Assembly: GCF_028281565.1 (NCBI RefSeq)
Contig: NZ_JANQJQ010000018.1
Coordinates: forward strand, 62,001 to 126,000
Direction of reading: 5' to 3'
Length of the DNA stretch: 64,000 nt
Origin: Seonamhaeicola sp.
GTDB lineage: Bacteria; Bacteroidota; Bacteroidia; Flavobacteriales; Flavobacteriaceae
The notes below the pieces were generated by a model. That model saw only the letters and a program-made list of their open reading frames with translations, ran no database searches and had not been told where the DNA came from. Within the stretch, counting starts at the first letter, position 1; every line of letters begins with the position of its first letter. Shown piece after piece: positions 5,792 through 63,288 of this stretch. The position numbers and the translations under genes were made by a program.

Positions 5792-5816
5792 TGTCATTCC
5801 CGCAACGGCGGGAATC
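5792..5816 (-). repeat. Dispersed hairpin repeat, GACA family (type B)
   Basis: Read on the minus strand: ATTCCCGC, loop CGTT, GCGGGAAT, then GACA. A perfect 8-bp stem placed 9 bases upstream of the mutS start codon, so it would lie in the mutS leader. It creates a false N-terminal extension of the mutS frame. Confidence 0.75.
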
Positions 5817-5948
5817 TACCAATGGTAAAGTGGTTTTTAAATATTATTTTTGCTTCAGATGTAAGATTGCTAATGTAGTATAATTTTGATTTTTTTTGAA
5901 ATAGACCTGCTGGAAGTTATCTACAATTAGTACGAGATTTTAACAAAA

Positions 5949-5976
5949 TGTCATTCTGAACAGCGTGAAGAATCTC
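5949..5976 (-). repeat. Dispersed hairpin repeat (type A), left half of doublet
   Basis: On the minus strand: ATTCT, TC, ACGCTGT, TC, AGAAT, GACA. The five-base arms are complementary and flanked inside by the TC/TC mismatch typical of type A copies. Faces away from the copy at 5994-6020. Confidence 0.7.
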
Positions 5977-5993
5977 ATTGAAGGCAAACAAAA

Positions 5994-6020
5994 AGATGCT
6001 TCGGTTCGCTCAGCATGACA
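5994..6020 (+). repeat. Dispersed hairpin repeat (type A), right half of doublet
   Basis: ATGCT, TC, GGTTCGC, TC, AGCAT, GACA. Compared with its partner at 5949-5976 the arm reads ATGCT instead of ATTCT and the other arm has changed to match (AGCAT instead of AGAAT). Confidence 0.7.
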
Positions 6021-6196
6021 AAGTGAGTTTTAAATATTATTTTTACCAAGTCGCAAGAGCACTAATACAAACAGTATTCCGCCTTTTATAAAGTGGAACA
6101 AACCTAAGTCATATTTAATTATCATGATTTGATTAGCCACGAATACACAAATATTTTATTTAATGATTCGTGAATTTGTGGCACAAGATTTTTTTT

Positions 6197-6736
6197 ATGC
6201 GCAAACTTAAAAACAGCGAACTGGACCGGTTAAGCGTCAACGATTTTAAAACGGCTAAAAAGACACCTTTAATCATTGTACTGGATAATATCAGAAGCTT
6301 AAACAACATCGGATCTGTCTTTAGAACCAGTGACGCCTTTTTAATTGAAAAGATCTACCTCTGCGGTATTACGGCCACACCACCGCATAAAGATATTCAT
6401 AAAACGGCTTTGGGCAGTACCGATACCGTAGATTGGGAATATGTTGAAAATACTCCGGACCTGGTTACAAGACTAAAGTCTCAAGGTGTGAAAGTGTGTG
6501 CTATTGAACAAGCCGAAAATGCCACGATGTTAAACGACTTCATACCTGAGCCTCAAACAACTTACGCCCTGGTTTTTGGCAATGAAGTTAAAGGAGTGGC
6601 TCAGGATGTGGTCAGCACCAGTGATGTGGTGATTGAAATCCCGCAATACGGTACCAAACACTCTTTAAATATTTCCGTGAGTGCAGGTGTTATGATTTGG
6701 GATGTGTTTAGCAAATTAAAAAATTCCAATCTCTAA
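6197..6736 (+). CDS. TrmH family (SPOUT) RNA 2'-O-methyltransferase
   Basis: Predicted to methylate a ribose 2'-hydroxyl in tRNA or rRNA using S-adenosylmethionine. The 179-residue product shows the three SPOUT motifs in order: 'LDNIRSLNNIGSVFRTSDAF' near residue 30 (catalytic Asn and Arg), 'LVFGNEVKGV' near 125, and 'IPQYGTKHSLNISVSAG' near 150, which forms the knotted cofactor site. It lacks the N-terminal substrate-binding extension of larger TrmH/RlmB proteins, so the RNA target is not predictable. A GTG 27 bases upstream would add nine residues; the ATG giving MRKLKNSEL is preferred because conservation begins there. Thirty bases separate it from the next methyltransferase gene. Confidence 0.9.
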   Translation: MRKLKNSELDRLSVNDFKTAKKTPLIIVLDNIRSLNNIGSVFRTSDAFLIEKIYLCGITATPPHKDIHKTALGSTDTVDWEYVENTPDLVTRLKSQGVKVCAIEQAENATMLNDFIPEPQTTYALVFGNEVKGVAQDVVSTSDVVIEIPQYGTKHSLNISVSAGVMIWDVFSKLKNSNL

Positions 6737-6766
6737 ATTCCAAATCCCAATAAAACACTTTATCAG

Positions 6767-7426
6767 GTGACCAAAAAATCAAAAACACCGTGGCTAACAA
6801 AGGATGTTATGGATCAGATCTATGAGCAACATCTTTGGGGTGGTAAGGATTTTGATTTTTATTCCGGTTACGGCTCCCATGACAATAACATCGTAAAACC
6901 CTATTTAGAGGCTGTTATTAATTTTTTGGATTCTTTTTCTGAACCTTTGGTCGTATGTGATCTAGGTTGTGGCGATTTCAATATTGGTAAGCACCTAACA
7001 TCCCATACCAAAACCTATATTGCCGTTGATATTGTTGAAAAACTGATTCAAAGGAATAAGGCTCAATTTAAAGCAGACGAATTAGAGTTCCATTGTCTGG
7101 ACATTTCAAAAGATGACCTGCCGCATGCCGACTGTGTGATCCTGCGACAAGTTCTTCAGCATTTGTCAAATACTGAAATACATCAAATCCTCAAGAAATT
7201 AAGAGGTTACAAATACATCATCTTAACAGAGCATGTTCCCATAGGGAACTTTATCGCCAACAAAGACATCATTTCCGGACAAGGCATCAGGCTAAAACAA
7301 AACAGCGGCGTTAATCTATCAGAATCACCGTTCCATTTTAAAATTAAAGATCAAAAAACCTTGAACGAACATTTTGTGGAAAATAATAAAGGACGTATTT
7401 TGACTGTCTTGTATAAAGTGTTTTGA
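6767..7426 (+). CDS. Class I SAM-dependent methyltransferase
   Basis: A 219-residue Rossmann-fold methyltransferase. Motif I is visible as 'VVCDLGCGDFNIGKHL' around residues 62-77, with an acidic residue after strand 2 ('YIAVDIVEKLI') and 'ADCVILRQVLQHLSN' for the motif IV/V region. No partner or substrate signature is recognised. It starts with GTG (MTKKSKTPWL); the next in-frame ATG is 14 codons later. Placed just after the TrmH-family gene on the same strand and converging on folK-dNK. Substrate unknown. Confidence 0.8.
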   Translation: MTKKSKTPWLTKDVMDQIYEQHLWGGKDFDFYSGYGSHDNNIVKPYLEAVINFLDSFSEPLVVCDLGCGDFNIGKHLTSHTKTYIAVDIVEKLIQRNKAQFKADELEFHCLDISKDDLPHADCVILRQVLQHLSNTEIHQILKKLRGYKYIILTEHVPIGNFIANKDIISGQGIRLKQNSGVNLSESPFHFKIKDQKTLNEHFVENNKGRILTVLYKVF

Positions 7427-7463
7427 TTGTTGTATCCTTTTTGTCATTCTTGTCTTTCGACTA

Positions 7464-8594
7464 TCACTCACCACAGATGGTGCTCAAAATCCATAAATAA
7501 TCGGCACGGTTTTTTACAAAATCTCTATCGGAGATATCAATGATCTTCACGTTAAAGTCTTTTTGGGTTTTTAAGAACTCCAAATAGCCTTCATTAATTT
7601 TTTCCAGGTAATCATCTTCAATATCCTGCTCGTAATCTCGGCCGCGTTTTTTAATGTTCTCCTGTAACCGCTTTGTATTCTGGTATAAATACACATACAA
7701 TTCCGGTTTGGCAATATCCTTATACATTAGATAGAATAACTTCCGGTATAGGGTGAACTCATCTTCCTGTAAAGTGATCTTGGAAAAGATAAGCGATTTA
7801 AACACATCATAGTCACTTACAATAAAGTCTTTGAATAGATCCAACTGAGACAGGTCATCACTTATTTGCTGGTATCTGTCTGCTAAAAAAGACATTTCCA
7901 ATGGAAATGCATATCGGGCGGCGTCTTTATAAAACTTTGGCAAAAACGGGTTGTCTGCAAACCTTTCCAGAATAAGTTTGGCATTAAAATCCTGTGATAT
8001 CATAGTTGCTAAACTCGTTTTACCGGCACCTATATTGCCTTCAATAGCTATATAATTAAACCTGGAAAAATCATAAGCCTTCCTCGGGTTTTTTAACCAG
8101 ATCTTAATAGGTTCCAGAACCGAGTCGTCTTCGCACGCCTCCAACAGAACTGATACTTCTTTGTTTAATTTAGGGTGCTTTACTTTTGAAGCAATATCAT
8201 AGAGTGGTTGTAACACAAACCTGCGTTTTGCCATTTCGGGATGCGGTACCTGCAAGGTTTTGATATCAATCACAGCGTCTCCTGCAAAAATGATATCCAA
8301 ATCTATGGTGCGTGCTTCGTATCCTTTACCTGTCTTACGGGTACGCCCTAATGATTTTTCAATTTTTAATAATACTTCCAGCACGTTTTGAGGCTTTAAA
8401 TAGCTATCTAAAACCAAACAGGCATTCAGAAAATCATCACTTTCAAAACCAAAAGCCGGCGATTTATAAACCTTTGAAATTAACTTAACATTCCCTACTT
8501 CGGCATGTATAGCATCAACCGCTAATTGCAGGTTTTTAAGCTTATCACCTTTATTGCTCCCCAGGGCTATATAAAATGTGGTAGATGACATCAT
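7464..8594 (-). CDS. Fused HPPK (FolK) and deoxynucleoside kinase
   Basis: Two enzymes in one 376-residue chain. Residues 1-160 are 6-hydroxymethyl-7,8-dihydropterin pyrophosphokinase of folate synthesis: 'LGSNKGD' at 11-17, 'RTIDLDII' at 95-102 and 'PHPEMAKRRFVLQPL' at 117-131 carry the metal- and ATP-binding residues. Residues 180-376 are a deoxynucleoside kinase of the dCK/dGK family with P-loop GNIGAGKTS (186-194), the 'FADNPFL' and 'SFLADRYQQ' segments and an Arg-rich lid 'KKRGRDYEQ'. This fusion is frequent in Flavobacteriia from general knowledge. Whether the kinase prefers deoxyadenosine, deoxyguanosine or deoxycytidine cannot be told. Convergent with the methyltransferase gene, divergent from yhhQ. 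Confidence 0.93.
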   Translation of the reverse strand: MMSSTTFYIALGSNKGDKLKNLQLAVDAIHAEVGNVKLISKVYKSPAFGFESDDFLNACLVLDSYLKPQNVLEVLLKIEKSLGRTRKTGKGYEARTIDLDIIFAGDAVIDIKTLQVPHPEMAKRRFVLQPLYDIASKVKHPKLNKEVSVLLEACEDDSVLEPIKIWLKNPRKAYDFSRFNYIAIEGNIGAGKTSLATMISQDFNAKLILERFADNPFLPKFYKDAARYAFPLEMSFLADRYQQISDDLSQLDLFKDFIVSDYDVFKSLIFSKITLQEDEFTLYRKLFYLMYKDIAKPELYVYLYQNTKRLQENIKKRGRDYEQDIEDDYLEKINEGYLEFLKTQKDFNVKIIDISDRDFVKNRADYLWILSTICGE

Positions 8595-8785
8595 AGAAAG
8601 GGCAAAATAAAAAAAGTTAATGTTTTCTTTTCTTTTTACAGAAGGTATTTATTCACAAATTGTCCTGAATATTGATACTGAGGTTGTCCGGGTACAATCA
8701 CACCTTTGGCGTAACTCCCGAACTGAGATAGGAAAATTAAAAATTGCGTATATTGACCCTGCAACAGATCGTTACTTTTTAATTT

Positions 8786-9490
8786 ATGACACAAAAAGAT
8801 AAACTAGCCGCCCAAAGAATCTACATGCTCTTAGGAGCGCTTTTTATTACCTCTCTGGTTGTTTCAAATTTAATTTTTCAAAAGTTTTTTTATTGGTATC
8901 CGGTGGATGTTGAGATCTTCGGCAGTAAACTTTTTGAAATTTCCGTAGGTATCTTGCCTTATCCCATTACTTTTTTAATTACCGATCTCATTAGTGAGAT
9001 CTACGGTAAAAAACGGGCGAACCAGGTGGTAGTCACAGGTATTTTTGCCTCTTTCTTTTCGCTTTTAATTGTTTCTGCTTCCAGCCTGGTGCAGGCCACA
9101 CCATGGTCTCCCGTTGACAACGACATGTTTGACACGGTTTTTGGAAACACTATCCTTGCTGTTTTAGCCAGTATGATGGCTTATTTATTTGCCCAGTTTG
9201 TGGACATACAGATCTATCATTTCTGGAAACAATTAACACAAGGCAGACACCTTTGGCTGCGTAATAACTTTTCAACCTGGTTTTCACAATTTGTGGACAC
9301 CTTCACAGTACTCGGTCTTTTATGCCTATTTGAAATCATTGCGTGGGACCGGTTTCTCGGCCTTTTATTCAGTGGATTCCTCTTTAAAGTACTGGTAGCA
9401 GCTGCAGATACGCCCTTTTTATATTTAGGTGTGTTCCTGTTCAGAAAACGCTTTAAATTAAAGGTGAACGAGGAGATCGACTTGTTATAA
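8786..9490 (+). CDS. yhhQ: Queuosine precursor transporter (YhhQ/DUF165 family)
   Basis: Inner-membrane protein of 234 residues that imports preQ0/preQ1, precursors of the tRNA base queuosine. About six membrane segments are visible, beginning with 'LLGALFITSLVVSNLIF'. Family hallmarks include 'GILPYPITFLITDLISEIYG' and 'WLRNNFSTWFSQFVDT' (conserved acidic and Asn residues in the pore). No queuosine-synthesis genes are in the window, consistent with salvage from outside but not proving it. The 190 bases upstream show no preQ1 riboswitch that I can recognise. Confidence 0.9.
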   Translation: MTQKDKLAAQRIYMLLGALFITSLVVSNLIFQKFFYWYPVDVEIFGSKLFEISVGILPYPITFLITDLISEIYGKKRANQVVVTGIFASFFSLLIVSASSLVQATPWSPVDNDMFDTVFGNTILAVLASMMAYLFAQFVDIQIYHFWKQLTQGRHLWLRNNFSTWFSQFVDTFTVLGLLCLFEIIAWDRFLGLLFSGFLFKVLVAAADTPFLYLGVFLFRKRFKLKVNEEIDLL

Positions 9491-9573
9491 CACGGGTTAA
9501 TTTTGGGTTAAATTTTAATCGGTTTCAAACCAAATCTTTCCAACTGCCGTATATTTATTCAAAAGTATGCTTT

Positions 9574-12198: not shown

Positions 12199-12396
12199 GT
12201 TGTATTATCCTGTGGACAACAGATATCTATTGAAAATTCTCTGTCATATCGAAATGCGATGCATAGAACTTGCCGAAATGAGGTAGGATTGAGGAGGGTA
12301 TTTAAAAACTTATAATTAAATTATGTGATTTCTCCCTTTCGGTCGAAATGACTTAGGGTCTGTCATTATAACAGCAGAAGATTCAGGATCAACCTG
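12199..12396. other. Intergenic spacer between convergent genes
   Basis: Holds one recognisable GACA-family hairpin (12327-12352) and a decayed sequence near 12242-12290 that starts with TGTCAT and may be the remains of its outward-facing partner. No T-tailed terminator was recognised. Confidence 0.5.
12327..12352 (+). repeat. Dispersed hairpin repeat (type A)
   Basis: ATTTC, TC, CCTTTCGG, TC, GAAAT, GAC. Complementary five-base arms with the inner TC/TC mismatch shared by the other type A copies. Confidence 0.65.
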
Positions 12397-13191
12397 TTAA
12401 TCTAAATTAAGCTTAACTACAAGTCCTTCATTGGCCCTGACATTAAAAACAGTTTCGTCTTCAAAGATCAGGTATTGTCCTTTAACACCAACCAATTTAC
12501 CGGAGTATGTTTGTTCTTTTACTATGTTTAAGCTTTTTGGTTTTTCAGGGTATTTACTTACTGGAAATTCCAAATTGGTTTCCGTATTACTTTCAATAAA
12601 ATAATCGCTTACTTCACTGGGAATAAAACCTTTTAAACGCTCCCGCCATTCTACTAAATTCTCATCTTCAATCTCATTCTTGAGCATTTTACGCCAATTG
12701 GTTTTATCAGACACCTGATCTTTTAAAGCCACTTCGGTAATACCCGCCAAATACCTGTTAGGCACCTCAACAATCTCTATAGCTTCATGGGCACCCTGAT
12801 CAATCCAACGTGTAGGCACCTGGTTCTTTCTAGTCACACCAACTTTCACATTACTCGAATTTGCCAAATACACAATATGTGGTTGCAACTGTGTTTTCTT
12901 TTCAAATTCCAGGTCACGTTCTTCAATGCCTAAATGGGCTTTACTTAATTCCGGTCGCATCACCCAATCAGCGGCCTGAGGCGCTTCATAAAAACACTGT
13001 TTGTCGAAGCCCTGACGGTAAATAGGTTTGTCCAATCCGCAATGTAAACACTGATACTTAACAAATTGCATGGTAATGCGCTTATTCAGCAACTGGTTCA
13101 TATTAATAAAATCGTTTTCAAACACTAAATAGTACTGAATAGGGCTTGCAAACTCCGTTTCCATTTTTGTTAAAACACCTTGGTAGAACAT
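12397..13191 (-). CDS. DUF2797 family protein
   Basis: A 264-residue protein of the DUF2797 family, function unknown. Visible features are a zinc-binding-like segment 'CLHCGLDKPIYRQGFDKQC' (C48, C51, C66), and near residue 107 a stretch 'HIVYLANSSNVKVGVTR' followed by 'RWIDQGA', which resembles the GIY-YIG nuclease core ('VYxAxxxxxKVGxTR'). Whether it cuts DNA is not known. It is divergent from the GH3-family gene with a 42-base spacer. Confidence 0.75.
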   Translation of the reverse strand: MFYQGVLTKMETEFASPIQYYLVFENDFINMNQLLNKRITMQFVKYQCLHCGLDKPIYRQGFDKQCFYEAPQAADWVMRPELSKAHLGIEERDLEFEKKTQLQPHIVYLANSSNVKVGVTRKNQVPTRWIDQGAHEAIEIVEVPNRYLAGITEVALKDQVSDKTNWRKMLKNEIEDENLVEWRERLKGFIPSEVSDYFIESNTETNLEFPVSKYPEKPKSLNIVKEQTYSGKLVGVKGQYLIFEDETVFNVRANEGLVVKLNLD

Positions 13192-20238: not shown

Positions 20239-20264
20239 GGATTCCCACTTTCATGGGAATGACA
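20239..20264 (+). repeat. Dispersed hairpin repeat (type B) in tig leader
   Basis: ATTCCCA, CTTTCA, TGGGAAT, GACA. A 7-bp stem lying between the predicted tig promoter and its start codon, so it should be part of the tig mRNA leader (in inverted sense). Confidence 0.75.
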
Positions 20265-20541
20265 ATTTCAATCGAAACTTTGAGACCAAACCTCAAAGCA
20301 TTTTTTGCGACTAAAATTGGGATGCAAAAGTAATACATTTTTACATCCCAACAAAGTTTTTAACAAGCTGATTTTAATACCATTTACCCTTTGAAATTAA
20401 TGCAATAAAACGCCCTTTTTCCCTTTCTTCTTCATTAAAAAAAGAAACCGTAACTAAGGCTATGCTTTATTTTTTAATTTGTATTAAAGAAAAAAATCAT
20501 CATTTTCTTTTACAGTAATCTCAAATGGCAACCGGTATAAG
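20265..20541. other. Intergenic region upstream of tig
   Basis: Part of a 346-base gap between tig and the holin-like gene. It contains the tig promoter at 20325-20355. The remainder (about 20360-20541) is AT-rich; I see no gene, RNA or T-tailed hairpin in it. Confidence 0.6.
20325..20355 (-). promoter_or_regulatory. tig promoter (Bacteroidetes type)
   Basis: On the minus strand TTTG, exactly 19 bases, then TACTTTTG: a full match to the Bacteroidetes -33/-7 consensus. Predicted leader about 120 bases, containing the hairpin repeat at 20239-20264. Confidence 0.75.
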
Positions 20542-31209: not shown

Positions 31210-31240
31210 ATTTAGTGAAACCAATATCTGATTAATAATC

Positions 31241-31277
31241 TGTTAATCTGAACTTGTTTCAATATTTCAGGTTCTCA
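31241..31277 (-). repeat. Decayed hairpin repeat, left half of doublet
   Basis: On the minus strand: GAGAACCTGAA, inner hairpin, TTCAGATTAACA. Outer arms CCTGAA/TTCAG remain complementary. It faces away from 31307-31354. Confidence 0.5.
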
Positions 31278-31306
31278 TCATAAAAGTTTGGATTATATTT
31301 GATACG

Positions 31307-32235: not shown

Positions 32236-32263
32236 GAGATCCTGAAACTAGTTCAGGATAACA
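32236..32263 (+). repeat. Dispersed hairpin repeat (type B)
   Basis: ATCCTGAA, ACTAG, TTCAGGAT, AACA. A perfect 8-bp stem between the convergent murI and gamma-carbonic anhydrase genes. It differs from the copy at 59831 by one compensated base pair (C-G instead of G-C). Confidence 0.75.
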
Positions 32264-33570: not shown

Positions 33571-33598
33571 GAGACCTCTCGACTGCGCTCGAGGTGAC
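33571..33598 (+). repeat. Dispersed hairpin repeat (type A) in kinase-regulator spacer
   Basis: ACCTC, TC, GACTGCGC, TC, GAGGT, GAC. It fills much of the 65-base gap between the histidine kinase and LytTR regulator genes. Its inner sequence equals that of the copy at 55043 while both arms differ. Confidence 0.7.
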
Positions 33599-36007: not shown

Positions 36008-37168
36008 ATGAAAACACATCTTAAAACATTCATTTTAAGTTTAACCTTAATTGGGTTCATGGCGTGTAACGCTAATAATAAAAAGCAAACCCAAAACGAC
36101 CTAGCTGAAGTTACAGTTAAACATCATCCGAACAAACAGTATATTAAGGTGGCCCTTTTGTTAGACACGAGTAATAGCATGGACGGATTAATAGATCAGG
36201 CCAAAGCACAACTTTGGGATATAGTTAATGAACTGTCTTATGCCAAATGTGGCGATGAAAAACCAAATCTGCAAATTGCATTATATGAATATGGAAACGA
36301 CAGGCTCCATAGTGCTGAAGGTTATATTAGACAAGTTTTGGCTTTTAGCAATGATTTAGATGATATCTCAAAAGAGCTTTTTTCTTTAACTACCAATGGT
36401 GGCAATGAGTATTGCGGACAAGTCATTCAAACCGCTTTAAACCAATTAAACTGGGGTAATAACCCGGATGATTTAAAACTGGTTTTTATTGCAGGCAACG
36501 AACCTTTTACTCAAGGCAGTGTTCATTACAAAGATGCTTCCGTAAATGCTAAAGAAAAAGATGTTACCATCAACACTATTTTCTGCGGCAATTACAATCA
36601 AGGTGTTTCTACCCACTGGAAAGATGGTGCCAAATTAACTAATGGAGATTATATGGCTATTGACCATAATCAGAAGACTGTACATATTGCTTCCCCTTAT
36701 GACGATAAGATTTTAATGCTGAATCAGCAATTAAACAAAACTTACGTAGCTTACGGTAAAAGAGGAAGGGATAAAGTAGCAGAACAAGCCCAACAAGACA
36801 CTAATGCCAGGGTATACGGTTATGCAAATGCGGTAAAACGTTCTGTTAGTAAGAGTTCTCATTTTTACAAAAACGCCTCCTGGGATTTAGTCGATGCCGT
36901 AGAAAATGAAGAAGTAGTCATTGAAGATCTAAAAGAAGAAGCGCTTCCCGAAGTGCTTAAGGGAAAATCTGAATCTGAAATAAAAGCCTATGTTGCCAAA
37001 AAGAAAACAGAAAGAGCGGCCATTCAGAAAAAAATCCAGGAGTTAAATGTGAAGCGCACCAAATATATATCGGAGCAATCCAGGACTAAAAACACCAATG
37101 GTTTGGAAAATGCCATGACCAAAGCCATTAAAGAACAGGCAAAAAAGAAACAATATACCTGGGATTAA
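36008..37168 (+). CDS. VWA-domain lipoprotein
   Basis: A 386-residue lipoprotein with lipobox ending at C20 ('IGFMAC'). The von Willebrand factor A domain starts about residue 46, with a metal-binding MIDAS motif DTSNS at 53-57 ('VALLLDTSNSMDG') and 'FIAGNEPFTQGSV' later. The C-terminal 100 residues are Lys/Glu-rich and probably helical. Such proteins mediate metal-dependent protein binding; the partner is unknown. It is divergent from the TPR histidine kinase gene, sharing a 207-base region that contains the 21-bp repeats, so it may be a target of that system (inference). Confidence 0.85.
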   Translation: MKTHLKTFILSLTLIGFMACNANNKKQTQNDLAEVTVKHHPNKQYIKVALLLDTSNSMDGLIDQAKAQLWDIVNELSYAKCGDEKPNLQIALYEYGNDRLHSAEGYIRQVLAFSNDLDDISKELFSLTTNGGNEYCGQVIQTALNQLNWGNNPDDLKLVFIAGNEPFTQGSVHYKDASVNAKEKDVTINTIFCGNYNQGVSTHWKDGAKLTNGDYMAIDHNQKTVHIASPYDDKILMLNQQLNKTYVAYGKRGRDKVAEQAQQDTNARVYGYANAVKRSVSKSSHFYKNASWDLVDAVENEEVVIEDLKEEALPEVLKGKSESEIKAYVAKKKTERAAIQKKIQELNVKRTKYISEQSRTKNTNGLENAMTKAIKEQAKKKQYTWD

Positions 37169-37202
37169 AAAAGGAAGCGGTCTGAAAAGTTAAATTTTTG
37201 TC

Positions 37203-37249
37203 AACCTGAACTTGCATGTACTGAACTTGTTTCAGTATTTCAGGCTCTC
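37203..37249 (-). repeat. Composite hairpin repeat, left half of doublet
   Basis: On the minus strand: AGCCTGAA, inner hairpin CTGAA/TTCAG, TTCAGGTT, GACA. Faces away from 37275-37302, joined by a roughly 25-base linker. Confidence 0.6.
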
Positions 37250-37274
37250 ATACCACCTGGCAACAAATTAGGAT

Positions 37275-37302
37275 GAGATTCTGAAATAAATTCAGAATGA
37301 CA
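37275..37302 (+). repeat. Dispersed hairpin repeat (type B), right half of doublet
   Basis: ATTCTGAA, ATAAA, TTCAGAAT, GACA: perfect 8-bp stem. Located between the convergent VWA and PorP/SprF genes. Confidence 0.75.
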
Positions 37303-37328
37303 ATCTTGAGTACTTTTCAGATCTGTTT

Positions 37329-38333
37329 TTAGTAATTAACCGCCGGACACTTACAGTCAAATCGTTGGCGTCTGCAACCAAAGTTATAACCTAAAGTAAA
37401 CTGGTGAAACCCACCATTTGTAAACACCACGGAATTGGTCTGATGTGTATACGTATAGGCAAACATGAAATTTTTATAATTAACACCTACAAGTGGCGTA
37501 ATTTGCTGTAATCTTTGGCTGTTTATAGCATTAGAACTGATATATTCGGCACCATCAAAACTATTTCTATATGATAAACCCGCCCAAATAGTTCCAAAAT
37601 CCATTTGCCTGTAAACTTTGGCATTTATATCAACAGAAGCCTCTTTAGTAGCATCTCTGTATTGTAACATCGCAGAAGGTTCATAACTCCAGGCGCTTCC
37701 CAATTTACCAAAAACACCACCAACAGTAAGCAAATAGCGCCTTAAATTACTGGTCACATTAGGTTCTTTGTTAATCCCTTCATTATTAAGCATGTTCTTT
37801 ACCGCTCCATGCGCATAAAAATCTAAAAAGTGATAAGAAAATCCAAAATCAATATTGAAGTTAGTAGCATTTTGAACAATACCATCTATTAACGGATCCG
37901 GCCCATCAAACAAAAAAGAGGTTTCATCCAGTTTGTACTGAATAAATCCGGCACTCAATCCAAACGACAACATATTTAGATCTACTTCACTTCTTGAAAA
38001 CATTAAGTGATGGGCATAGGTTGCGTAGGCACCCGTTTGTGAGTGAAACCCGTTTTTATCTGTATATACAATCCCCCCTATTCCCGATGGTGAGTCTCCT
38101 ATTCTACCGTTAATACTCAATGTTGTTAATCTTGGAGCATCATCATGACCGAACCATTGCTGACGTGACGTTAGTCTTATCTTAGAACAATTGGCGGCTC
38201 CGGCCATAGACGGGTGAATTAAATAATAATTATCGGTAAGATAATCAGTATATATAGGCAAGCCTTCTTGTGAAATAGCAACATTAGTGAATACCACCCC
38301 TATTGCTATCATTAATATATTTTTTAATCTCAT
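37329..38333 (-). CDS. PorP/SprF family type IX secretion system membrane protein
   Basis: A 334-residue outer-membrane barrel. Signal peptide ends 'FTNVAISQ'; the mature start 'EGLPIYTDYLTDNYYLIHPSMAGAANCSKIRLTSRQQW' is the characteristic PorP/SprF opening (stay-put Asn-Pro/His-Pro-Ser-Met-Ala-Gly). PorP is a core T9SS part, while SprF-type paralogues attach particular adhesins such as SprB. Here no giant adhesin gene is adjacent, and the gene appears single. Which of the two roles applies cannot be told. The last residues 'RRQRFDCKCPAVNY' contain a CxC. Confidence 0.9.
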   Translation of the reverse strand: MRLKNILMIAIGVVFTNVAISQEGLPIYTDYLTDNYYLIHPSMAGAANCSKIRLTSRQQWFGHDDAPRLTTLSINGRIGDSPSGIGGIVYTDKNGFHSQTGAYATYAHHLMFSRSEVDLNMLSFGLSAGFIQYKLDETSFLFDGPDPLIDGIVQNATNFNIDFGFSYHFLDFYAHGAVKNMLNNEGINKEPNVTSNLRRYLLTVGGVFGKLGSAWSYEPSAMLQYRDATKEASVDINAKVYRQMDFGTIWAGLSYRNSFDGAEYISSNAINSQRLQQITPLVGVNYKNFMFAYTYTHQTNSVVFTNGGFHQFTLGYNFGCRRQRFDCKCPAVNY

Positions 38334-50231: not shown

Positions 50232-50258
50232 AGATTCTTCGCTCTGCTCAGAATGACA
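50232..50258 (+). repeat. Dispersed hairpin repeat (type A) between SCO and DUF420 genes
   Basis: ATTCT, TC, GCTCTGC, TC, AGAAT, GACA. It occupies nearly the whole 37-base spacer between two genes of one operon. Confidence 0.75.
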
Positions 50259-52225: not shown

Positions 52226-52250
52226 GATTTCCTTCTTCAAGGAAATGACA
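52226..52250 (+). repeat. Dispersed hairpin repeat (type B) between oxidase genes
   Basis: ATTTCCTT, CTTC, AAGGAAAT, GACA. A perfect 8-bp stem in the 61-base gap between subunit III and subunit IV genes. Confidence 0.7.
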
Positions 52251-54945: not shown

Positions 54946-54981
54946 GGGTTAGAAGAAAATAAAATAAGGCTGTTTAAAACG

Positions 54982-55010
54982 TGTCATTCTGAATGAAAAT
55001 GAAGAATCTC
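54982..55010 (-). repeat. Dispersed hairpin repeat (type A), left half of doublet
   Basis: On the minus strand: ATTCT, TC, ATTTTCAT, TC, AGAAT, GACA. Inside the loop of the 21-bp inverted repeat. Confidence 0.7.
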
Positions 55011-55042: not shown

Positions 55043-55071
55043 GAGATTTTTCGACTGCGCTCAAAATGACA
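55043..55071 (+). repeat. Dispersed hairpin repeat (type A), right half of doublet
   Basis: ATTTT, TC, GACTGCGC, TC, AAAAT, GACA. Same inner sequence as the copy at 33571 with different, still complementary arms. Confidence 0.7.
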
Positions 55072-55119
55072 GCTTTAAAATGTTTTAAACAGCCTTATTT
55101 TAAAATTAAAACTTACGAT

Positions 55120-58368: not shown

Positions 58369-58418
58369 AATTTTAAAAACTTTTTTAGGTTAGACATTAA
58401 TTTATGTTTGACTTTAAG

Positions 58419-58446
58419 GAACCGTTTTGTTGGCGCAAAACGGTTC
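58419..58446. terminator. Hairpin between lipoprotein and T9SS protein genes
   Basis: An 11-bp stem (GAACCGTTTTG / CAAAACGGTTC) 12 bases after the stop of the minus-strand lipoprotein gene. The T run is on the plus strand, opposite to the genes, so the direction is uncertain; it may also be in the leader of the downstream gene. Confidence 0.5.
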
Positions 58447-58457
58447 TCTTTTTTTGA

Positions 58458-58988
58458 TTATTCACTGAATGTCATATCAAAACGTCCTTCACGTATTTGA
58501 TGCACATTACCATCCTGATCCTCTATATCATACCAGAAGGTGCCCGAAACGATATTCTTTTCCATATCTAATTTTGTTATAGACATTTCTCCAGAATGAC
58601 TAGTTGAGGTGTAATTTGTAAATATTTCGAAAGCGTATCTACCTACTGCATTACCATCATGTAATTCCTCTAATTCATAAGTTTTGCCTTCTTCAATTTG
58701 TAGTTTTTGTGTACCAAGACCTACTCCAACTAAATTGAGATTTATCTCTTTATCTGCCTTTAAAGCAAAATAATAATCCCCACTTACAAATTGGTATACA
58801 CAATCCAGTGTTAAAGGGCCGGGACCTGGTAAAAAGGCCTCGCCATCCAGCAGGCAACCAAAGGTGTTTTCACCGGTTTGGGTTGCCGGTGGCAGCTGGT
58901 CTATGGGATTAACCGGGGTGTCATCATCCTTTTTGTTACAACAACTTAATACCAGCAGTATTACGAGTAAATGCATTGTCTTTTTCAT
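58458..58988 (-). CDS. DUF6252-like lipoprotein (copy 2)
   Basis: A 176-residue lipoprotein with lipobox 'LVLSC' at C16 and an acidic linker. It shares with the upstream gene product (59013-59546) nearly identical ends: 'PPATQTGENTFGCLLDGEAF' near the N-terminus and 'LDMEKNIVSGTFWYD' and 'GRFDMTFS' near the C-terminus, while the middle third differs. The conserved pattern fits the DUF6252 family of Bacteroidetes lipoproteins. Function unknown. Co-directional with and 24 bases downstream of its paralogue. Confidence 0.75.
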   Translation of the reverse strand: MKKTMHLLVILLVLSCCNKKDDDTPVNPIDQLPPATQTGENTFGCLLDGEAFLPGPGPLTLDCVYQFVSGDYYFALKADKEINLNLVGVGLGTQKLQIEEGKTYELEELHDGNAVGRYAFEIFTNYTSTSHSGEMSITKLDMEKNIVSGTFWYDIEDQDGNVHQIREGRFDMTFSE

Positions 58989-59012
58989 GTTGATCTTATT
59001 TTCATAATTATT

Positions 59013-59546
59013 TTATTTACTGAATGTCATATCAAAACGTCCATCTCGTACTTGATGTATATTACCATCCTGATCTTCTACATCATACCAAAAGGTGCCC
59101 GAAACGATATTTTTCTCCATATCTAATTTTGAAATATACATCTCTCCAGAGTTTAATGATGAAGTTCTAAATCTTTCAAGATTAAAAAAATAAGAACCAT
59201 ATGCGTTCCCTTCAACTCCTTCCATTAACTTATATATTTGCCCTTCCTCAATCTCTAATTTCTCTGTTGAACATCCAATCAATTTTGAATTATTCTGTTC
59301 ATCTCTTTTATTTGCCTGTAAAGCAAAATAATAGTCTCCATTTACAAATTGGTACACACAATCCAAGGTTAAGGGGCCGGGGCCGGGTAAAAAGGCCTCG
59401 CCGTCCAGCAGGCAACCAAAAGTATTTTCACCGGTTTGGGTAGCCGGTGGCAGCTGGTCTTTGGGATTAACGGGGGTATCATCATCCTTTTCGCAGGACA
59501 CACATAAAACAAAAGTGCATAGCGCCATTAAGCTTAATATTTTCAT
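59013..59546 (-). CDS. DUF6252-like lipoprotein (copy 1)
   Basis: Paralogue of the next gene product. The ATG at 59546 gives a clean lipoprotein signal ('MKILSLMALCTFVLCVSC', 177 residues); the frame extends five codons upstream. The mature part begins with Glu-Lys-Asp-rich linker, then the shared 'LPPATQTGENTFGCLLDGEAF' and a divergent centre ('NNSKLIGCSTEKLEIEEGQIY'). Function unknown; probably arisen by tandem duplication. Confidence 0.75.
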   Translation of the reverse strand: MKILSLMALCTFVLCVSCEKDDDTPVNPKDQLPPATQTGENTFGCLLDGEAFLPGPGPLTLDCVYQFVNGDYYFALQANKRDEQNNSKLIGCSTEKLEIEEGQIYKLMEGVEGNAYGSYFFNLERFRTSSLNSGEMYISKLDMEKNIVSGTFWYDVEDQDGNIHQVRDGRFDMTFSK

Positions 59547-59751
59547 AGCATTATTTATCACTGTTAACGTTGAGAGTCCTTATACATTTAAGACTTGATA
59601 TCAGGATAGGATTATATCAAATATCTTAAATACTTAACAGTTAGGATTACATATCATAAATGTAGTAAAACTACGTCAGAAAAACTACTTTTTTTATGAT
59701 GAAAATCAGGTATTAAGAATTAGGGTACTGAAGCCAAGTTTGAGAGCACTT

Positions 59752-59794
59752 CGATGCTTCGACAAGGCTCAGCACAGGCAAGCTCAGCGTGACA
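59752..59794 (+). repeat. Dispersed hairpin repeat (type A with internal duplication)
   Basis: ATGCT, TC, GACAAGGC, TC, AGCA, then CAGGCAAG, CTCAGCGTGACA. The right arm is present twice, as if a second right half had been added. Confidence 0.55.
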
Positions 59795-59830
59795 TGTTTC
59801 TTTAATTATTGTTATGAGCTAATTATATAT

Positions 59831-59858
59831 GAGATGCTGAAACTAGTTCAGCATGACA
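59831..59858 (+). repeat. Dispersed hairpin repeat (type B)
   Basis: ATGCTGAA, ACTAG, TTCAGCAT, GACA: perfect 8-bp stem with the same loop as the copy at 32236 and one compensated base-pair change. Confidence 0.75.
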
Positions 59859-59974
59859 AGGTCATTATAACTAAATGAGGTCCCGATAGCCATCAGGATT
59901 CCTGCTTGCCAGCAGGCAAGAATTCAACTTACAATTTTGGGTTCGTCTACAAGACTTCCCAAAATCGAGTTTCA

Positions 59975-62074
59975 TTAAAAATCAAAATACCAATTAAACA
60001 GGTCCGTTCTTAGGCCGAAATTGAACCAAACCGTATTGTTATCAAAGGTTGACGTAGTTGTGGCATTGGGATTGAAATTCCTTACCGTAATATCTGTGAA
60101 TAGTTTCAAATTGGATGCGGGATTAATTAAATACCCGGCCTGTAAATTCGCATAAAATGACCTGGTTTTGATACCCTGACCAATCTCTACACCAGTATCA
60201 AACGGACGTTCGTTATAATCCCTATAAATATCACCTCCGTAACTAAAATTATCGGTCCCGTCATTATAATCTAAGCCGCGATTACCAAAAATAAATTTGG
60301 CATCGGCAAACCATCTGTCTAATCTGTAACGTCCTATTAAGACCAGTTCACTAAAATTAGCACCCCACAAATGCGCCAGAGTCTGGTTGTTATGGGCATA
60401 GTTAAGTACAATGGTGTTATGGGAATAGGTGTAGGGCCTTATACGATTATATTCCAGTTGCAGGAACAAATTATCAACTTTAAAAGCATTGTAATACTTA
60501 ACTCCCAATTGATAACCGTATTTATTTTTCCAGCTTTTATCACCGCCTTTTATATCACTTAATGAAAATTCATCCAGAATAAACTGGCCATAGGCATTCA
60601 CATTATCACTAAACTTGTATTTAGCCGAAGCTCCCAATAACGCATTTCCTGCACCTTGTCCCGTTTCAAACTCGATGGCCCTGTAAAAAATGATCGGGTT
60701 CAGGTAATTAATATCAAAACCACGGTCGTTACTATTGGTCCAAAGTACGGACTCGAACAGCCCCAAATTAAACCGTTTGGATACATTCCAGCTCAAATAA
60801 TGGTTGGCTACATATTTGGTTAAAAAAGCTTTATCCTCCACCACTTCATCGCGTACATCTTTCATCCACATAAAGGTATTGGTATACTTTATTTTCCAGA
60901 ATTTGGTGTTCAGTTTTAAGAACGGATGCGGACTAGTCACATCACTCAATAACAGGGATCTATAGCCATCGCCGATAAAGTTTTTACCATGCCCGAACTG
61001 AATATTTAAGAACTTTGCTGGTGAATAAGATAAGTAAGCTTCGGCTACCGGGTAGTCATAAGAATCAGTCTTAAAACGTTTTGCTATACCACGGCCGGGA
61101 ATTATAGCCGGATCCGGGCCAAACGCCTTTAAACTCTCAGCATATCTATTCACATAATCTGCAAAACGCCCCTGGCTTTCAAATACTGCTGAATAAAAAT
61201 TGAATTTTTTACCTAAGCCTCCCTGAACTACAAATCCACGTGTGTTGTTATAGGTTGAATTGAAATCGGCATCGGTATCTTTACCAACCTGTAAATCGAA
61301 AATCGGATCAATAGTAAACCAGTAATCTTTACCCTGCACCTGAACCAAATGCTCATTCCAAAGCTTTTTACCTGCCCAGGTTTTGGTATCTTTTTGCAAC
61401 CGTTTGTTCTCAGCTTCAAAATCGTAATATTTCGAAACATCGCTATATAAAAAAGGCTTAGACGCCGTGTGACTGTTCGTTCCCAACAAGTTCATGGCTC
61501 TGTCAAACCTGGCATAATCACTATGAATAAACTGGATATTCAATTCGCTTGTAAATCGTTTATTACTGTACGGCACTAAGCTTTTCCGAACACTGTCAAA
61601 CTCTTGTTGCGCAGCAGTTTCAAACTTAGCCATTTCTTTTTCCTTAGCCAGGTCCTGAGTGATTGGTGTCTGCTTAACCAAAGGAATTTGAATGGGGATT
61701 GAGTATTGCTTAAATGTACTGTTTCCATTGTATGTCCCAGGTGTTATTTTAGGAAATGTCTTAAAAACGCGCCTGGCTTCTTCCTTTAATTCATTGTAAA
61801 AGGCATCTACATATATTACTTTAAAGGCTCCTGTTTTATCCACTTCAAACAGCACCACCATTCTACCTTTATACTGCTCATCAAGCACCTTCTGAGGCAC
61901 TTTAAAATTATCATAAATACGATTGAATACGTTTCTATCAAAACAGTGTTGTAAAGAATCTATTGCTACACTGTCACAATTTGGAAAAACCGGTGGTTTT
62001 TCATTTAAAAATTTATCTTGTGAATACCCGATAAATTGAACTAAAAGTAGGTATAGGACAACAAATCTTATCAT
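59975..62074 (-). CDS. remB: Gliding motility protein RemB-like
   Basis: A 699-residue outer-membrane protein with a signal peptide (to 'FIGYSQ') whose long barrel-like C-terminal part ('FGHGKNFIGDGYRSLLLSDV', 'RFNLGLFESVLWTNSNDRG') is what I recall for RemB, a protein needed for normal gliding in Flavobacterium johnsoniae. Residues 28-132 are different: 'PPVFPNCDS' with C33/C44, 'VVLFEVDKTGAFKVIYVD' and 'EEARRVFKTFPKITPGTYNG' look like the C-terminal module of the two TonB proteins encoded just upstream. The RemB name rests on memory of the family. Confidence 0.75.
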   Translation of the reverse strand: MIRFVVLYLLLVQFIGYSQDKFLNEKPPVFPNCDSVAIDSLQHCFDRNVFNRIYDNFKVPQKVLDEQYKGRMVVLFEVDKTGAFKVIYVDAFYNELKEEARRVFKTFPKITPGTYNGNSTFKQYSIPIQIPLVKQTPITQDLAKEKEMAKFETAAQQEFDSVRKSLVPYSNKRFTSELNIQFIHSDYARFDRAMNLLGTNSHTASKPFLYSDVSKYYDFEAENKRLQKDTKTWAGKKLWNEHLVQVQGKDYWFTIDPIFDLQVGKDTDADFNSTYNNTRGFVVQGGLGKKFNFYSAVFESQGRFADYVNRYAESLKAFGPDPAIIPGRGIAKRFKTDSYDYPVAEAYLSYSPAKFLNIQFGHGKNFIGDGYRSLLLSDVTSPHPFLKLNTKFWKIKYTNTFMWMKDVRDEVVEDKAFLTKYVANHYLSWNVSKRFNLGLFESVLWTNSNDRGFDINYLNPIIFYRAIEFETGQGAGNALLGASAKYKFSDNVNAYGQFILDEFSLSDIKGGDKSWKNKYGYQLGVKYYNAFKVDNLFLQLEYNRIRPYTYSHNTIVLNYAHNNQTLAHLWGANFSELVLIGRYRLDRWFADAKFIFGNRGLDYNDGTDNFSYGGDIYRDYNERPFDTGVEIGQGIKTRSFYANLQAGYLINPASNLKLFTDITVRNFNPNATTTSTFDNNTVWFNFGLRTDLFNWYFDF

Positions 62075-62165
62075 GGAAAAAGATTAAGCATTGATTTAAA
62101 GTTGAAAGATAGCATATTTTTTTGATGAAGCGATTTTGATTATTCAAAAACATAAAACCATATAC

Positions 62166-62278
62166 ATCAATCGGACACTGAGGCTCTCGAAGTGTATTTC
62201 AGGTTCTCATCATAAAATCACCTATTATTAAGATTCCGAAATACCTTGCCTGACGGCAGGCAGGAATTTGGAATGACA
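62166..62278. repeat. Decayed composite hairpin-repeat doublet
   Basis: The left half (62166-62210) is a degraded CCTGAA-type hairpin on the minus strand. The right half (62231-62278) has outer arms ATTCC/GGAAT enclosing a CTTGCCTG/CAGGCAGG-type hairpin and ends in GACA. Lies between the tonB gene and remB. Confidence 0.5.
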
Positions 62279-62346
62279 CAACAGAGAAAAACCGCTACCA
62301 ATTGATTTGATAACGGTTTTAGAGCTTTAAAATCATCTGGTTCCAG

Positions 62347-63129
62347 TTATTGGACATCAAAAATTATAGGCAAGGTATACCTGACTTTTACAGGTTTATC
62401 ACGTTGTTTCCCAGGTTTCATTTTAGGCACCTTATTAATAACACGTTCAGCTTCTTTATTCAATCTGGGATGCGGTGCTCTTGTTTGAATGTCGATAACA
62501 TTTCCCTGTTTATCAATAGTGAATTGCGTTAGAACGGTTTGTCTACCGGATAAGCCTAATTCATCTCCCAGTGATGTATCGAACTTTTTCCTAATCAGCT
62601 TAGTCAACTTCTCAGACATACACTTTTTTCTGGCATCATTAGTTTTCTTGTTTTCACATCCGGGATAAACCGGCACTTCTTCAATAAAAACAAAATCAAC
62701 AATAGGTTCCTCAGTTGGCTCTTCTATTGAGTCAAAATCCTCTAATGGTGGATTTTTATCTTCCACGGGTTCATCAGGAGTGTCTAAGATTTGCTCAATA
62801 ATAGGCTCGTTATCTTCTACTTCAATAAAGTCTTTCGGTTGTTTAACTTTCTTCTGTTGAACCGGTTCTTCAGTTGGACGCTTTTCAGGTGTTATCAACG
62901 GGATGTCGATACTGTAAGGGTCATCGGGAGGTAACTGGCTGGCTACTGTTGGAATCTTAGTTTCAAATTTCATTTCAAACAATCCATGGGTGATCAACAG
63001 GCACACAATTAGTCCTACCTGGAAATAAAGGGTGGAGTTTTTTTGTAAATTTGCTTCATGCTTTTGCGGTTTTTTCACAGGTTTCTCATTTTGCCGAATG
63101 AGCCTGTGAGATTCTTTACGATGTCTCAT
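62347..63129 (-). CDS. Energy transducer TonB
   Basis: Carries proton-motive energy from ExbBD to outer-membrane receptors. The 260-residue product has a basic N-terminus, one membrane helix (about 35-51, 'YFQVGLIVCLLITHGLF'), a Pro/Glu/Asp-rich periplasm-spanning region and a C-terminal TonB domain ('VLTQFTIDKQGNVIDIQTRAPHPRLNKEAERVI', ending 'RYTLPIIFDVQ'). Just before that domain is a 'PVYPGCE...C' pair of cysteines found in Bacteroidetes TonB proteins. A paralogue lies 208 bases upstream. Confidence 0.93.
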   Translation of the reverse strand: MRHRKESHRLIRQNEKPVKKPQKHEANLQKNSTLYFQVGLIVCLLITHGLFEMKFETKIPTVASQLPPDDPYSIDIPLITPEKRPTEEPVQQKKVKQPKDFIEVEDNEPIIEQILDTPDEPVEDKNPPLEDFDSIEEPTEEPIVDFVFIEEVPVYPGCENKKTNDARKKCMSEKLTKLIRKKFDTSLGDELGLSGRQTVLTQFTIDKQGNVIDIQTRAPHPRLNKEAERVINKVPKMKPGKQRDKPVKVRYTLPIIFDVQ

Positions 63130-63189
63130 AATTAATTATAATTTAAATGTTAATATTATGATAAAATCACAAGAAGCATACCAAAAAAG

Positions 63190-63220
63190 AAATCCCGTTA
63201 CAAAATTTGTAACGGGATTT
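63190..63220 (-). terminator. Terminator after upstream tonB gene
   Basis: A 15-bp stem (AAATCCCGTTACAAA and its complement) followed on the minus strand by CTTTTTT. It separates the two tonB genes, so they are transcribed independently. Confidence 0.85.
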
Positions 63221-63262
63221 TATATGGTTACTTAGCGCTGCTAAGTGGTTTAATTTTTGTTT

Positions 63263-63288
63263 GGATTCCCGCTTTCGCGAGAATGACA
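63263..63288 (+). repeat. Dispersed hairpin repeat (type B)
   Basis: ATTCCCGC, TTTC, GCGAGAAT, GACA. One mismatch (C-A) in the 8-bp stem. Between the tonB gene's stop and its terminator. Confidence 0.7.

What the first reader, a model, noticed from the sequence alone, without database searches (positions are those of the whole stretch)
5792..63288. A family of dispersed intergenic hairpins with co-varying arms
At least 15 copies lie between genes. All end in GACA (or GAC, AACA). Type A (5949, 5994, 12327, 33571, 50232, 54982, 55043, 59752) reads N5-TC-N7/8-TC-N'5-GACA; type B (5792, 20239, 32236, 37275, 52226, 59831, 63263) has a 7-8 bp stem. The arms differ between copies (ATTCT/AGAAT, ATGCT/AGCAT, ATTTT/AAAAT, ATTTC/GAAAT, ACCTC/GAGGT; ATCCTGAA, ATTCTGAA and ATGCTGAA with matching partners), yet each pair stays complementary, except single mismatches or a decayed arm in 63263 and 59752. 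That pattern of compensated change points to selection on the folded form. I know of no named family.
Basis: partly seen in the sequence, partly recalled or inferred. Interest (0 to 1): 0.78.

Follow-up and report, generated by a model that had tools for sequence, protein, structure and literature searches.

The report
TGTC-tagged hairpin repeats, mobiliser unknown
Short hairpin-forming DNA repeats scattered between the genes of this bacterium belong to a known kind of bacterial repeat (REP elements), but in a variant with a conserved flaw in the stem; the same sequence turns up in many other bacterial phyla, and I could not find an enzyme that spreads it.

Summary
All 15 sites exist; 864 kb of this genome hold 55 units against 4 in a shuffled copy, 48 of 55 intergenic. 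Arms covary (type A: 34 cells changed on both sides, none on one). Read on the other strand, a unit is 5'-TGTC + hairpin + often CTC, some in head-to-head pairs, frequent in convergent gaps and rare in divergent ones. That is the anatomy of the CGTC/TGTC-tagged REP superfamily (Di Nocera 2013), so "no named family" is wrong. New here: (1) type A has a 5-bp stem, a conserved tandem G.A mismatch and a covarying inner stem, sometimes with a second G.A step; (2) G.T pairs are very rare, favouring DNA over RNA as the paired form; (3) one exact 27-base form occurs in records titled to about 17 phyla; (4) 60 Y1 (RAYT-type) transposase loci are not enriched in units, and 26 of 52 unit-rich genera show no Y1 in two searches; (5) a minority of pairs sit inside longer palindromes, some terminator-like. 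Best reading: a non-autonomous hairpin element spread by an unidentified enzyme acting on the TGTC strand. Mobility and mobiliser are inferred, not shown.

The parts
5792..5816 (+). type B2 unit (TGTC on this strand), 8-bp stem ATTCCCGC, loop 4; overlaps the end of a called ORF
5949..5976 (+). type A unit, left half of head-to-head pair; ATTCT-GA-...-GA-AGAAT
5994..6020 (-). type A unit, right half of the pair; ATGCT arms
12327..12352 (-). type A unit, ATTTC/GAAAT arms, tag AGTC
20239..20264 (-). type B2 unit; present at the same place in relative G154, absent in five other genus relatives
20278..20298 (.). terminator-like hairpin that accompanies the B2 unit (20239); followed by CATTTTTT
32236..32263 (-). 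type B1 unit ATCCTGAA/TTCAGGAT, tag TGTT; G150 and G153 have different units near the same stop codon
33571..33598 (-). type A unit, ACCTC/GAGGT arms, inside a 65-bp stretch between two genes that abut directly in four relatives
37179..37189 (.). left outer arm GGTCTGAAAAG of composite
37275..37302 (-). type B1 unit, ATTCTGAA stem, right half of pair
37313..37323 (.). right outer arm CTTTTCAGATC of composite
50232..50258 (-). type A unit in a 37-bp gap between two genes
52226..52250 (-). type B2-like unit, 8-bp stem, loop 4
54961..54980 (.). left outer arm AAAATAAGGCTGTTTAAAAC
54982..55010 (+). type A unit, left half of pair
55043..55071 (-). type A unit, right half of pair, ATTTT arms
55082..55101 (.). 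right outer arm GTTTTAAACAGCCTTATTTT
59752..59794 (-). chimeric or nested unit (5' part of one unit joined to a second, by eye; weak model match, 16 bits)
59831..59858 (-). type B1 unit, ATGCTGAA stem
63263..63288 (-). type B2 unit with one stem mismatch (not recovered by the scoring scan)
63302..63323 (.). terminator-like hairpin accompanying 63263
31239..31278 (+). partial type B1 unit

Best explanation
These are TGTC-tagged REP elements: non-autonomous units of about 25-28 nt whose TGTC strand folds, as single-stranded DNA, into a short hairpin (tag TGTC, AT-led lower stem, in type A a conserved tandem G.A mismatch, a 2-bp upper stem and a small loop, then often CTC). The unit most likely to move is the head-to-head pair, as in REPINs. 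Shown here: the anatomy, the covariation, the scarcity of G.T pairs, the intergenic placement with preference for convergent gaps, presence and absence at orthologous gaps, and the spread over genera and phyla. Inferred: that an enzyme supplied in trans recognises the tag plus the irregular hairpin on the TGTC strand and copies or moves it, as TnpA-REP does with GTAG REPs (for E. coli REPs the GTAG tag and a mismatched bulge are both reported as required, PMC8266576, passages seen). Its identity is unknown, and a Y1 transposase encoded next to the units is not supported by my data. Pairs may also act as transcription terminators where outer arms and a T-run make a larger hairpin; I treat that as a by-product.
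For: Covariation with no one-sided change: 22 type A (34 of 154 cells), 16 type B1 (14 of 128), 58 distinct type A copies from relatives (85 of 391; regions picked around the best matches). The pair on the loop side of the tandem G.A covaries too (13 GC, 7 AT, 1 CG, 1 unpaired of 22; 27 GC, 25 AU, 1 unpaired). The G.A step without circularity: my type A label requires it, so its invariance is by construction; a scan that does not ask for it finds it in 12 of 13 intergenic 5-6 bp hairpins of the right size, 2 of 5 coding, 0 of 8 in the shuffled copy, and 38 of 41 intergenic ones in picked family regions. G.T pairs: 0 of 294 ungapped cells in the top 45 type A matches, 2 of 168 in the top 21 type B1 matches. 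Intergenic: 48 of 55. Gaps holding units: 13 of 56 convergent, 18 of 290 tandem, 2 of 78 divergent. Pairs: 10 head-to-head, 4 tail-to-tail, 27 singles among 41 elements; 42 of 82 cross-phylum copies are in head-to-head pairs. Presence/absence in syntenic gaps of genus relatives.
Against: No mobiliser found: no gene family recurs beside the unit in three or more genomes among 80 loci. A rank test shows more units in Y1-bearing genera (Mann-Whitney p 0.02) although the Fisher test on rich genera is not significant (p 0.12), so some link to Y1 is not excluded. No movement was observed; insertion ends could not be placed to the base, except roughly at 20239. Covariation measures that count pairs or pair types do not exceed shuffles. 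Folding energies of single units are small and not better than shuffles, and both strands fold alike with DNA parameters (-1.9 and -1.7 kcal/mol), so strand choice is inferred; one whole composite (37165-37330) does fold far better than shuffles (z -4.3). One G.T pair was seen among 29 inner pairs of relatives. No target-site signature was established.
Confidence: 0.6

Rival explanations
1. RNA element: the hairpins act in transcripts (terminator, 3'-end stabiliser or attenuator) and pairing is kept by selection on RNA.
For: Preference for convergent gaps and avoidance of divergent gaps; some pairs lie inside terminator-like outer hairpins and some B2 units come with a terminator-like hairpin; the type A TGTC strand folds a little better as RNA than its complement (-4.6 against -3.5 kcal/mol). 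Di Nocera et al. argue for RNA roles from placement and GT pairing in their sets.
Against: G.T pairs are very rare here (0 of 294 and 2 of 168 cells; no one-sided change in 391 cells). The same sequence recurs at unrelated loci and in unrelated phyla. Single units are no more stable than shuffles.
Confidence: 0.15
2. Arms stay matched because replication template-switching inside the quasi-palindrome rewrites one arm from the other; no selection on the fold is needed.
For: Lack of one-sided intermediates, which a mutational correction would give.
Against: Does not explain the conserved tandem G.A, which such correction would turn into a perfect stem, nor the tag and the dispersal. It could still act together with the main explanation.
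Confidence: 0.1
3. The moving entity is a MITE with outer terminal inverted repeats (GAGRCTGTYTAAAA type) moved by a DDE transposase, and the TGTC units are its internal part.
For: In this genome the 14-mer occurs 8 times at 5 places; the five elements read there are all head-to-head pairs, and two near-identical sets lose similarity at the outer arms, by eye. The same composite occurs twice in a genome of another family of the class (L331, L336).
Against: Only 3 of 41 elements in the own-genome sample have outer arms above the null and 1 of 40 single units across phyla, so it cannot account for most copies. One uninterrupted hairpin with the same arms and a T-run in G127 (L333) suggests the arms are a terminator; two more 17-mer matches (L332, L335) have neither units nor a partner arm. 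No transposase with these ends was seen.
Confidence: 0.1
4. A Y1 (RAYT-type) transposase in trans is the mobiliser, as for GTAG REPs.
For: The unit plan is the same as for E. coli REP (tag, lower stem, mismatch, upper stem; PMC8266576). Positive rank association of unit number with Y1-bearing genera (p 0.02).
Against: 60 Y1 loci (192 kb) carry 5 units in 4 loci, 0.026 per kb, against 0.058 per kb in this genome (imperfect, since the loci come from genera of varied unit density). Six L003-class loci have other palindromes nearby. 26 of 52 unit-rich genera show no Y1 in two searches (some of the 26 are incomplete assemblies).
Confidence: 0.1

Closest known systems
CGTC-tagged REP superfamily (Di Nocera, De Gregorio, Rocco 2013, PMC3733652; by its text includes Neisseria dRS3 and Rickettsia RPE-4/RPE-6)
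   Same: Tag CGTC or TGTC at one end, stems that start with AT, head-to-head pairs over tail-to-tail, mostly intergenic and rare between divergent genes, no associated transposase gene; reported in Bacteroidetes, G. forsetii named in the text.
   Different: Type A has a stem interrupted by a tandem G.A and, in some long forms, a second one; the tail is mostly CTC, not CCA, in types A and B1; G.T pairs are rare. The paper's Figure 2 (family consensus) is not held, so whether type A is among its four families could not be checked.
GTAG-tagged REPs, REPINs and TnpA-REP/RAYT (E. coli, Pseudomonas)
   Same: Tetranucleotide tag, hairpin with mismatches in E. coli, inverted pairs (passages).
   Different: Different tag; Y1 loci not flanked by these units.
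MITEs with terminal inverted repeats
   Same: A minority of pairs lie between outer inverted arms and seem to have moved as one composite.
   Different: Most copies lack outer arms; no target duplication recognised by eye.

Membership tests
CGTC/TGTC-tagged REP superfamily | unpaired CGTC (or TGTC, CCTC) at one end | tested here: met
   GTC in all 22 type A and 16 B1 aligned copies (the scan asks for GAC on the other strand, so this is partly by construction); preceded by T in 19 of 22 and 14 of 16, by C in 2 of 16, by A in 3 of 22
CGTC/TGTC-tagged REP superfamily | complementary A and T at the first and second stem positions | tested here: met
   first pair A-T in 20 of 22 and 16 of 16, second T-A in 19 of 22 and 12 of 16; the scan's score favours AT, so partly by construction
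CGTC/TGTC-tagged REP superfamily | uninterrupted stem of 8-9 bp with loop of 4-5 | tested here: inconclusive
   met by B1 (8 bp, loop 5) and most B2 (8 bp, loop 4); not met by type A (5 bp, tandem G.A, 2 bp, small loop)
CGTC/TGTC-tagged REP superfamily | 3-nt tail at the untagged end, mostly CCA | tested here: inconclusive
   CCA in 4 of 9 units filed as B2 (two of the 9 look like chance hits); CTC in 13 of 22 type A and 10 of 16 B1
CGTC/TGTC-tagged REP superfamily | head-to-head pairs predominate over tail-to-tail | tested here: met
   10 against 4 among 41 elements; 27 are singles
CGTC/TGTC-tagged REP superfamily | not flanking a transposase gene | tested here: met
   tested for Y1 only: 5 units in 60 Y1 loci, below the density of this genome
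GTAG REP with dedicated RAYT | GTAG or GTGG tag | tested here: not met
GTAG REP with dedicated RAYT | Y1 gene flanked by the same repeats | tested here: not met
MITE with TIR | terminal inverted repeats on most copies | tested here: not met
   3 of 41 elements with outer arms above the null
MITE with TIR | target-site duplication | tested here: inconclusive
   none recognised by eye at the five composites read; no systematic test
Rfam family | match above gathering score | tested here: not met
   only two tRNAs in the window

The most novel reading that the evidence does not exclude
A single hairpin repeat lineage, shared almost unchanged by bacteria of about 17 phyla, is spread by an enzyme that is not a Y1/RAYT transposase: a new kind of single-strand hairpin mobility that recognises a TGTC tag plus a tandem G.A step and that tends to place pairs inside existing palindromes (terminators, other repeats).
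Probability: 0.2. Interest if true: 0.85.

Novelty: new variant of a known kind. Interest (0 to 1): 0.55.

Why it matters
CGTC-type REPs were reported in 2013 to lack a visible transposase, and I found no paper that names one in the held library. The data here make the question sharper: a defined hairpin grammar (tag, lower stem, tandem G.A, upper stem), a phylum-crossing sequence that can be synthesised and used as bait, and genomes rich in units with no Y1 detected in two searches (for example G131, one contig, 100% complete, 40 matches counted). Finding the enzyme would add a mobility system that shapes gene 3' ends in many bacteria.

Tried and rejected
Y1 transposase next to a type A pair in this genome (L003, a Y1 frame that runs on into an ORF that looks like HemF): a lead because the pair lies just beyond the HemF end. 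The other 29 loci from the same search (L025-L053) carry no type A or B unit, one weak unclassified hairpin in L042 (the stricter scan had missed even the known pair in L024). Six loci examined have other palindromes close by. Rejected.

Recurring neighbour gene: all-against-all comparison of ORFs of 80 aa or more in 80 loci from many phyla gave only two clusters of three or more loci; the larger (8 loci) has two members near a unit, both from one Desulfatirhabdium bin, the smaller (3 loci) has one. Ten genes close to units or unit arrays in relatives include no transposase by Pfam: nine have a hit at E up to 0.01 (one of them only below the curated cut-offs, one to a phage virion family), one has none.

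Phages and plasmids: in 50,697 phage records 21 weak hits, best E 0.2; in 72,556 plasmid records five, of which three unannotated Phocaeicola records match 27-28 bases at 93-96%.

General rule that units sit in hairpin loops: holds for a minority of pairs only. Own sample: 3 of 41 elements above the null, all three pairs (of 10). Cross-phylum: 13 of 42 pairs against 1.1 expected, 1 of 40 singles against 1.0; by eye five of the 13 (L280 twice, L245, L238, L243) are neighbouring or enclosing repeats or doubtful, leaving eight, of which L252 and L213 are weak and L231 and L253 are alike.

Strand choice from folding energy: no useful difference with DNA parameters.

Rows dropped and limits: covariation set A1 uses the 22 of 30 type A units with a standard loop; A2 uses the 16 B1 units; the window unit at 32236 is in neither, its tag being TGTT. 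One search counted some pairs on both strands; one search removed these and copies near contig ends (82 of 87 used). One search used the 30 fetched loci of each, not every match, and its unit and Y1 tables were copied by hand. In one search at most 47 candidates per genome were scored, so counts are lower bounds; 150 of 2,281. The family regions were picked around strong matches; the genus stretches gave only one of the 64 matches. The first script on the sample failed on a file name.
Full report
WHAT IS THERE. The 15 sites of the finding are in the sequence. Rfam has nothing there above its gathering scores (only two tRNAs in the window). I sampled 864 kb of the same genome (window plus four runs of 200 kb; genome 5.27 Mb in 48 contigs). 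A scoring scan gives 55 units, 30 type A and 25 type B, against 4 in one Markov-shuffled copy, none of them type A; 48 of 55 are intergenic, while about 89% of the sequence is inside called ORFs (464 kb part). By proportion this means some 300 units in the genome (inference).

ANATOMY. I read the units on the strand that begins TGTC. Type A is then TGTC - five paired bases starting AT - GA - 7 or 8 bases - GA - five complementary bases - often CTC (13 of 22). The 7-8 bases are not a plain loop: their first and last bases pair and covary (13 GC, 7 AT, 1 CG, 1 unpaired of 22), and so does the next pair in most (13 CG, 4 UA, 5 unpaired). So the hairpin is a 5-bp lower stem, a tandem G.A mismatch and a 2-bp upper stem. 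My type A label asks for the G.A step, so its invariance in the alignment proves nothing; a scan that does not ask for it finds it in 12 of 13 intergenic hairpins of that size, in 2 of 5 coding ones and in 0 of 8 of the shuffled copy, and in 38 of 41 intergenic ones of the picked family regions. The pairs covary likewise in 58 distinct copies from relatives (85 cells changed on both sides of 391, none on one side), nearly all from family regions picked around strong matches. Some long forms carry a second G.A step: 2 of 5 long-loop units in this genome, 3 of 10 in relatives, 13 of 30 across phyla. Type B1 (8-bp stem, loop 5) keeps the same 5' half but has TC where type A has the second GA, so the step is paired there; two of its pairs vary, both with changes on both sides, and six are constant. 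Type B2 (8-bp stem ATTCCNNN, loop 4) fits the text description of CGTC-1, to which that paper assigns dRS3.

COVARIATION AND WHAT IT MEANS. Covariation score and percentage paired exceed all 500 shuffles in the three sets, and slid structures score far lower; the measures that count pairs or pair types do not exceed shuffles. There is no one-sided standard change in any set. In model-selected matches, where my scanner does not exclude G.T, G.T pairs number 0 of 294 ungapped cells (top 45 type A matches) and 2 of 168 (top 21 type B1 matches); other mismatches number 19 and 1. One G.T appears among 29 inner pairs of relatives. RNA stems usually tolerate G.U, so this speaks for DNA as the paired form. 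It differs from the remark of Di Nocera et al. on the frequency of GT pairing in their stems. Two caveats: copies are related, so changes are not independent events; and a template-switch process that copies one arm onto the other would leave the same trace. The conserved, unrepaired G.A step argues that such copying is not the whole story.

GENOMIC SETTING. Units are found in 13 of 56 convergent gaps, 18 of 290 tandem gaps and 2 of 78 divergent gaps, in line with what is described for REPs of both tags (section read). Among 41 elements there are 10 head-to-head pairs, 4 tail-to-tail and 27 singles. The syntenic stretches of six genus relatives are poorer in units: 9 in 396 kb against 55 in 864 kb here by the same scan, so this genome looks enriched. 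The comparison shows gain or loss. At 33571 two genes abut exactly in four relatives but are 65 bp apart here, with the unit inside. At 20239 the unit and a terminator-like hairpin are present here and in G154 and absent in the other five. At 37275 four relatives have a plain terminator-like hairpin. At 32236 two relatives have different units close to the same stop codon; this may be one inherited unit with changed arms, or repeated insertion, and I cannot tell which.

COMPOSITES. Some pairs lie between longer inverted arms. In the own-genome sample this is clear for 3 of the 10 scanned pairs, plus 37275 by eye; the stretch 37165-37330 folds as single-stranded DNA far better than shuffles (z -4.3). 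The 14-base arm GAGRCTGTYTAAAA occurs 8 times in the genome, at 5 places; all five elements read there are head-to-head pairs, and two near-identical sets lose similarity at the arms, by eye, so the composite may move as one. In 295 genomes of the class the 17-base form occurs in 5: besides this genome, two such composites in a genome of another family, one uninterrupted hairpin with the same arms followed by TTTTTT in G127, and two matches with neither units nor a partner arm. Across phyla 13 of 42 pairs have outer complementarity of 20 or more against 1.1 expected, and 1 of 40 singles against 1.0; eight of the 13 remain after removing neighbouring repeats and doubtful cases, two of them weak and two alike. 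Some units lie inside the loop of another unit (five candidates by pattern, L245 and L268 the clearest). Di Nocera et al. noted repeats inside palindromes in three species, one of them with CGTC pairs (passage). Whether this reflects insertion into hairpin tips or mobile composites is open.

SPREAD. With the type A model, 108 of 149 genera of the family have matches at E up to 0.01 (capped per genome). By their record titles they fall in about 17 phylum-level groups, five loci being unassigned; among the groups are Bacteroidota, Chloroflexota, Bacillota, Planctomycetota, Verrucomicrobiota, Nitrospirota, Acidobacteriota, Cyanobacteria, Armatimonadota, Campylobacterota and Patescibacteria (my grouping of titles). 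Most are metagenome bins, where misplaced contigs are possible; six records bear RefSeq-style names of Calothrix (two), Hymenobacter, Winogradskyella, Chryseobacterium and Helicobacter marmotae, three phyla. Chance would give far less than one match (arithmetic, inference). In 61 genomes of the phylum a 26-letter form matched 15 times, in 6 genomes, and its backward control never.

WHO MOVES IT. The genome has three Y1 loci, one with stops inside. Together 60 Y1 loci from the family (192 kb) carry 5 units in 4 loci, two of them the pair of this genome: 0.026 per kb against 0.058 per kb in this genome. The comparison is imperfect because genera differ in unit density. Six L003-class loci examined have other palindromes nearby, three with CCTGCAAGG arms and three with other ACCT-led arms. 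Of 52 genera with at least ten units, 26 show no Y1 in two searches, some of them incomplete assemblies; 35 of the 97 other genera have Y1. The Fisher test gives p 0.12 and a rank test p 0.02 in favour of more units with Y1, so a loose association is not excluded. No gene family recurs beside the unit in three or more genomes. This is in line with the 2013 statement that CGTC REPs have no associated transposase. By analogy with E. coli TnpA-REP, reported to need both its GTAG tag and a mismatched bulge in the stem (PMC8266576, passages), I think an enzyme acting on the TGTC single strand most likely; this step is inferred.

VERDICT. Real, well supported, and a variant of a known kind: TGTC-tagged REP elements. 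The tandem G.A grammar, the rarity of G.T, the sequence identity across phyla and the missing enzyme are the parts worth following. Literature claims rest on these searches of the held library; a search for pieces of the sequence in paper text listed 17 papers, by their titles none about bacterial repeats. The RepRanger paper tabulates two Flavobacterium species; I saw only that table passage. I read the abstract, passages, section 15 and part of section 17 of PMC3733652, and passages of PMC6006769, PMC8266576 and PMC12306157; figures are not held.

Noticed in passing
L003:349-1863 (G000:C5, about 50.8-52.3 kb): A Y1 transposase reading frame runs on in frame into an ORF that looks like coproporphyrinogen oxidase (HemF, recognised from memory, not by search); five relatives also have open frames above 500 aa at their match.
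   Followed up: partly
L025-L027, L029, L031, L033 (Y1 loci): L003-class Y1 loci have palindromes close by, three of six with CCTGCAAGG arms, the rest with other ACCT-led arms: a separate REP-like family with its own candidate enzyme.
   Followed up: partly
L001:1100-1950: A second Y1 gene lies between inverted copies of a GATAGCGCGGATTTGTAATCCGTGCC-like hairpin (by eye), another candidate REPtron.
   Followed up: no
window 20239-20298, 63263-63323; L102 near 18606: B2 unit, a linker ATTTCAATNGAAAC and a terminator-like hairpin with different, still complementary arms recur together in three places.
   Followed up: partly
L333 near 1501 (G127:C26:57521): Uninterrupted terminator-like hairpin with the same arms as the composite elements: possible empty target or excision product.
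   Followed up: no
L173:4750-5927 (G038:C7): Array of 14 units in mixed orientation between two glycosyltransferase genes.
   Followed up: no
C5:92233-92296 (L008:12233-12296): Two type A units in tail-to-tail order inside a called ORF.
   Followed up: no
window 58458-59561: Two tandem ORFs that share stretches of 185 and 138 bases at 90 and 89% identity.
   Followed up: no
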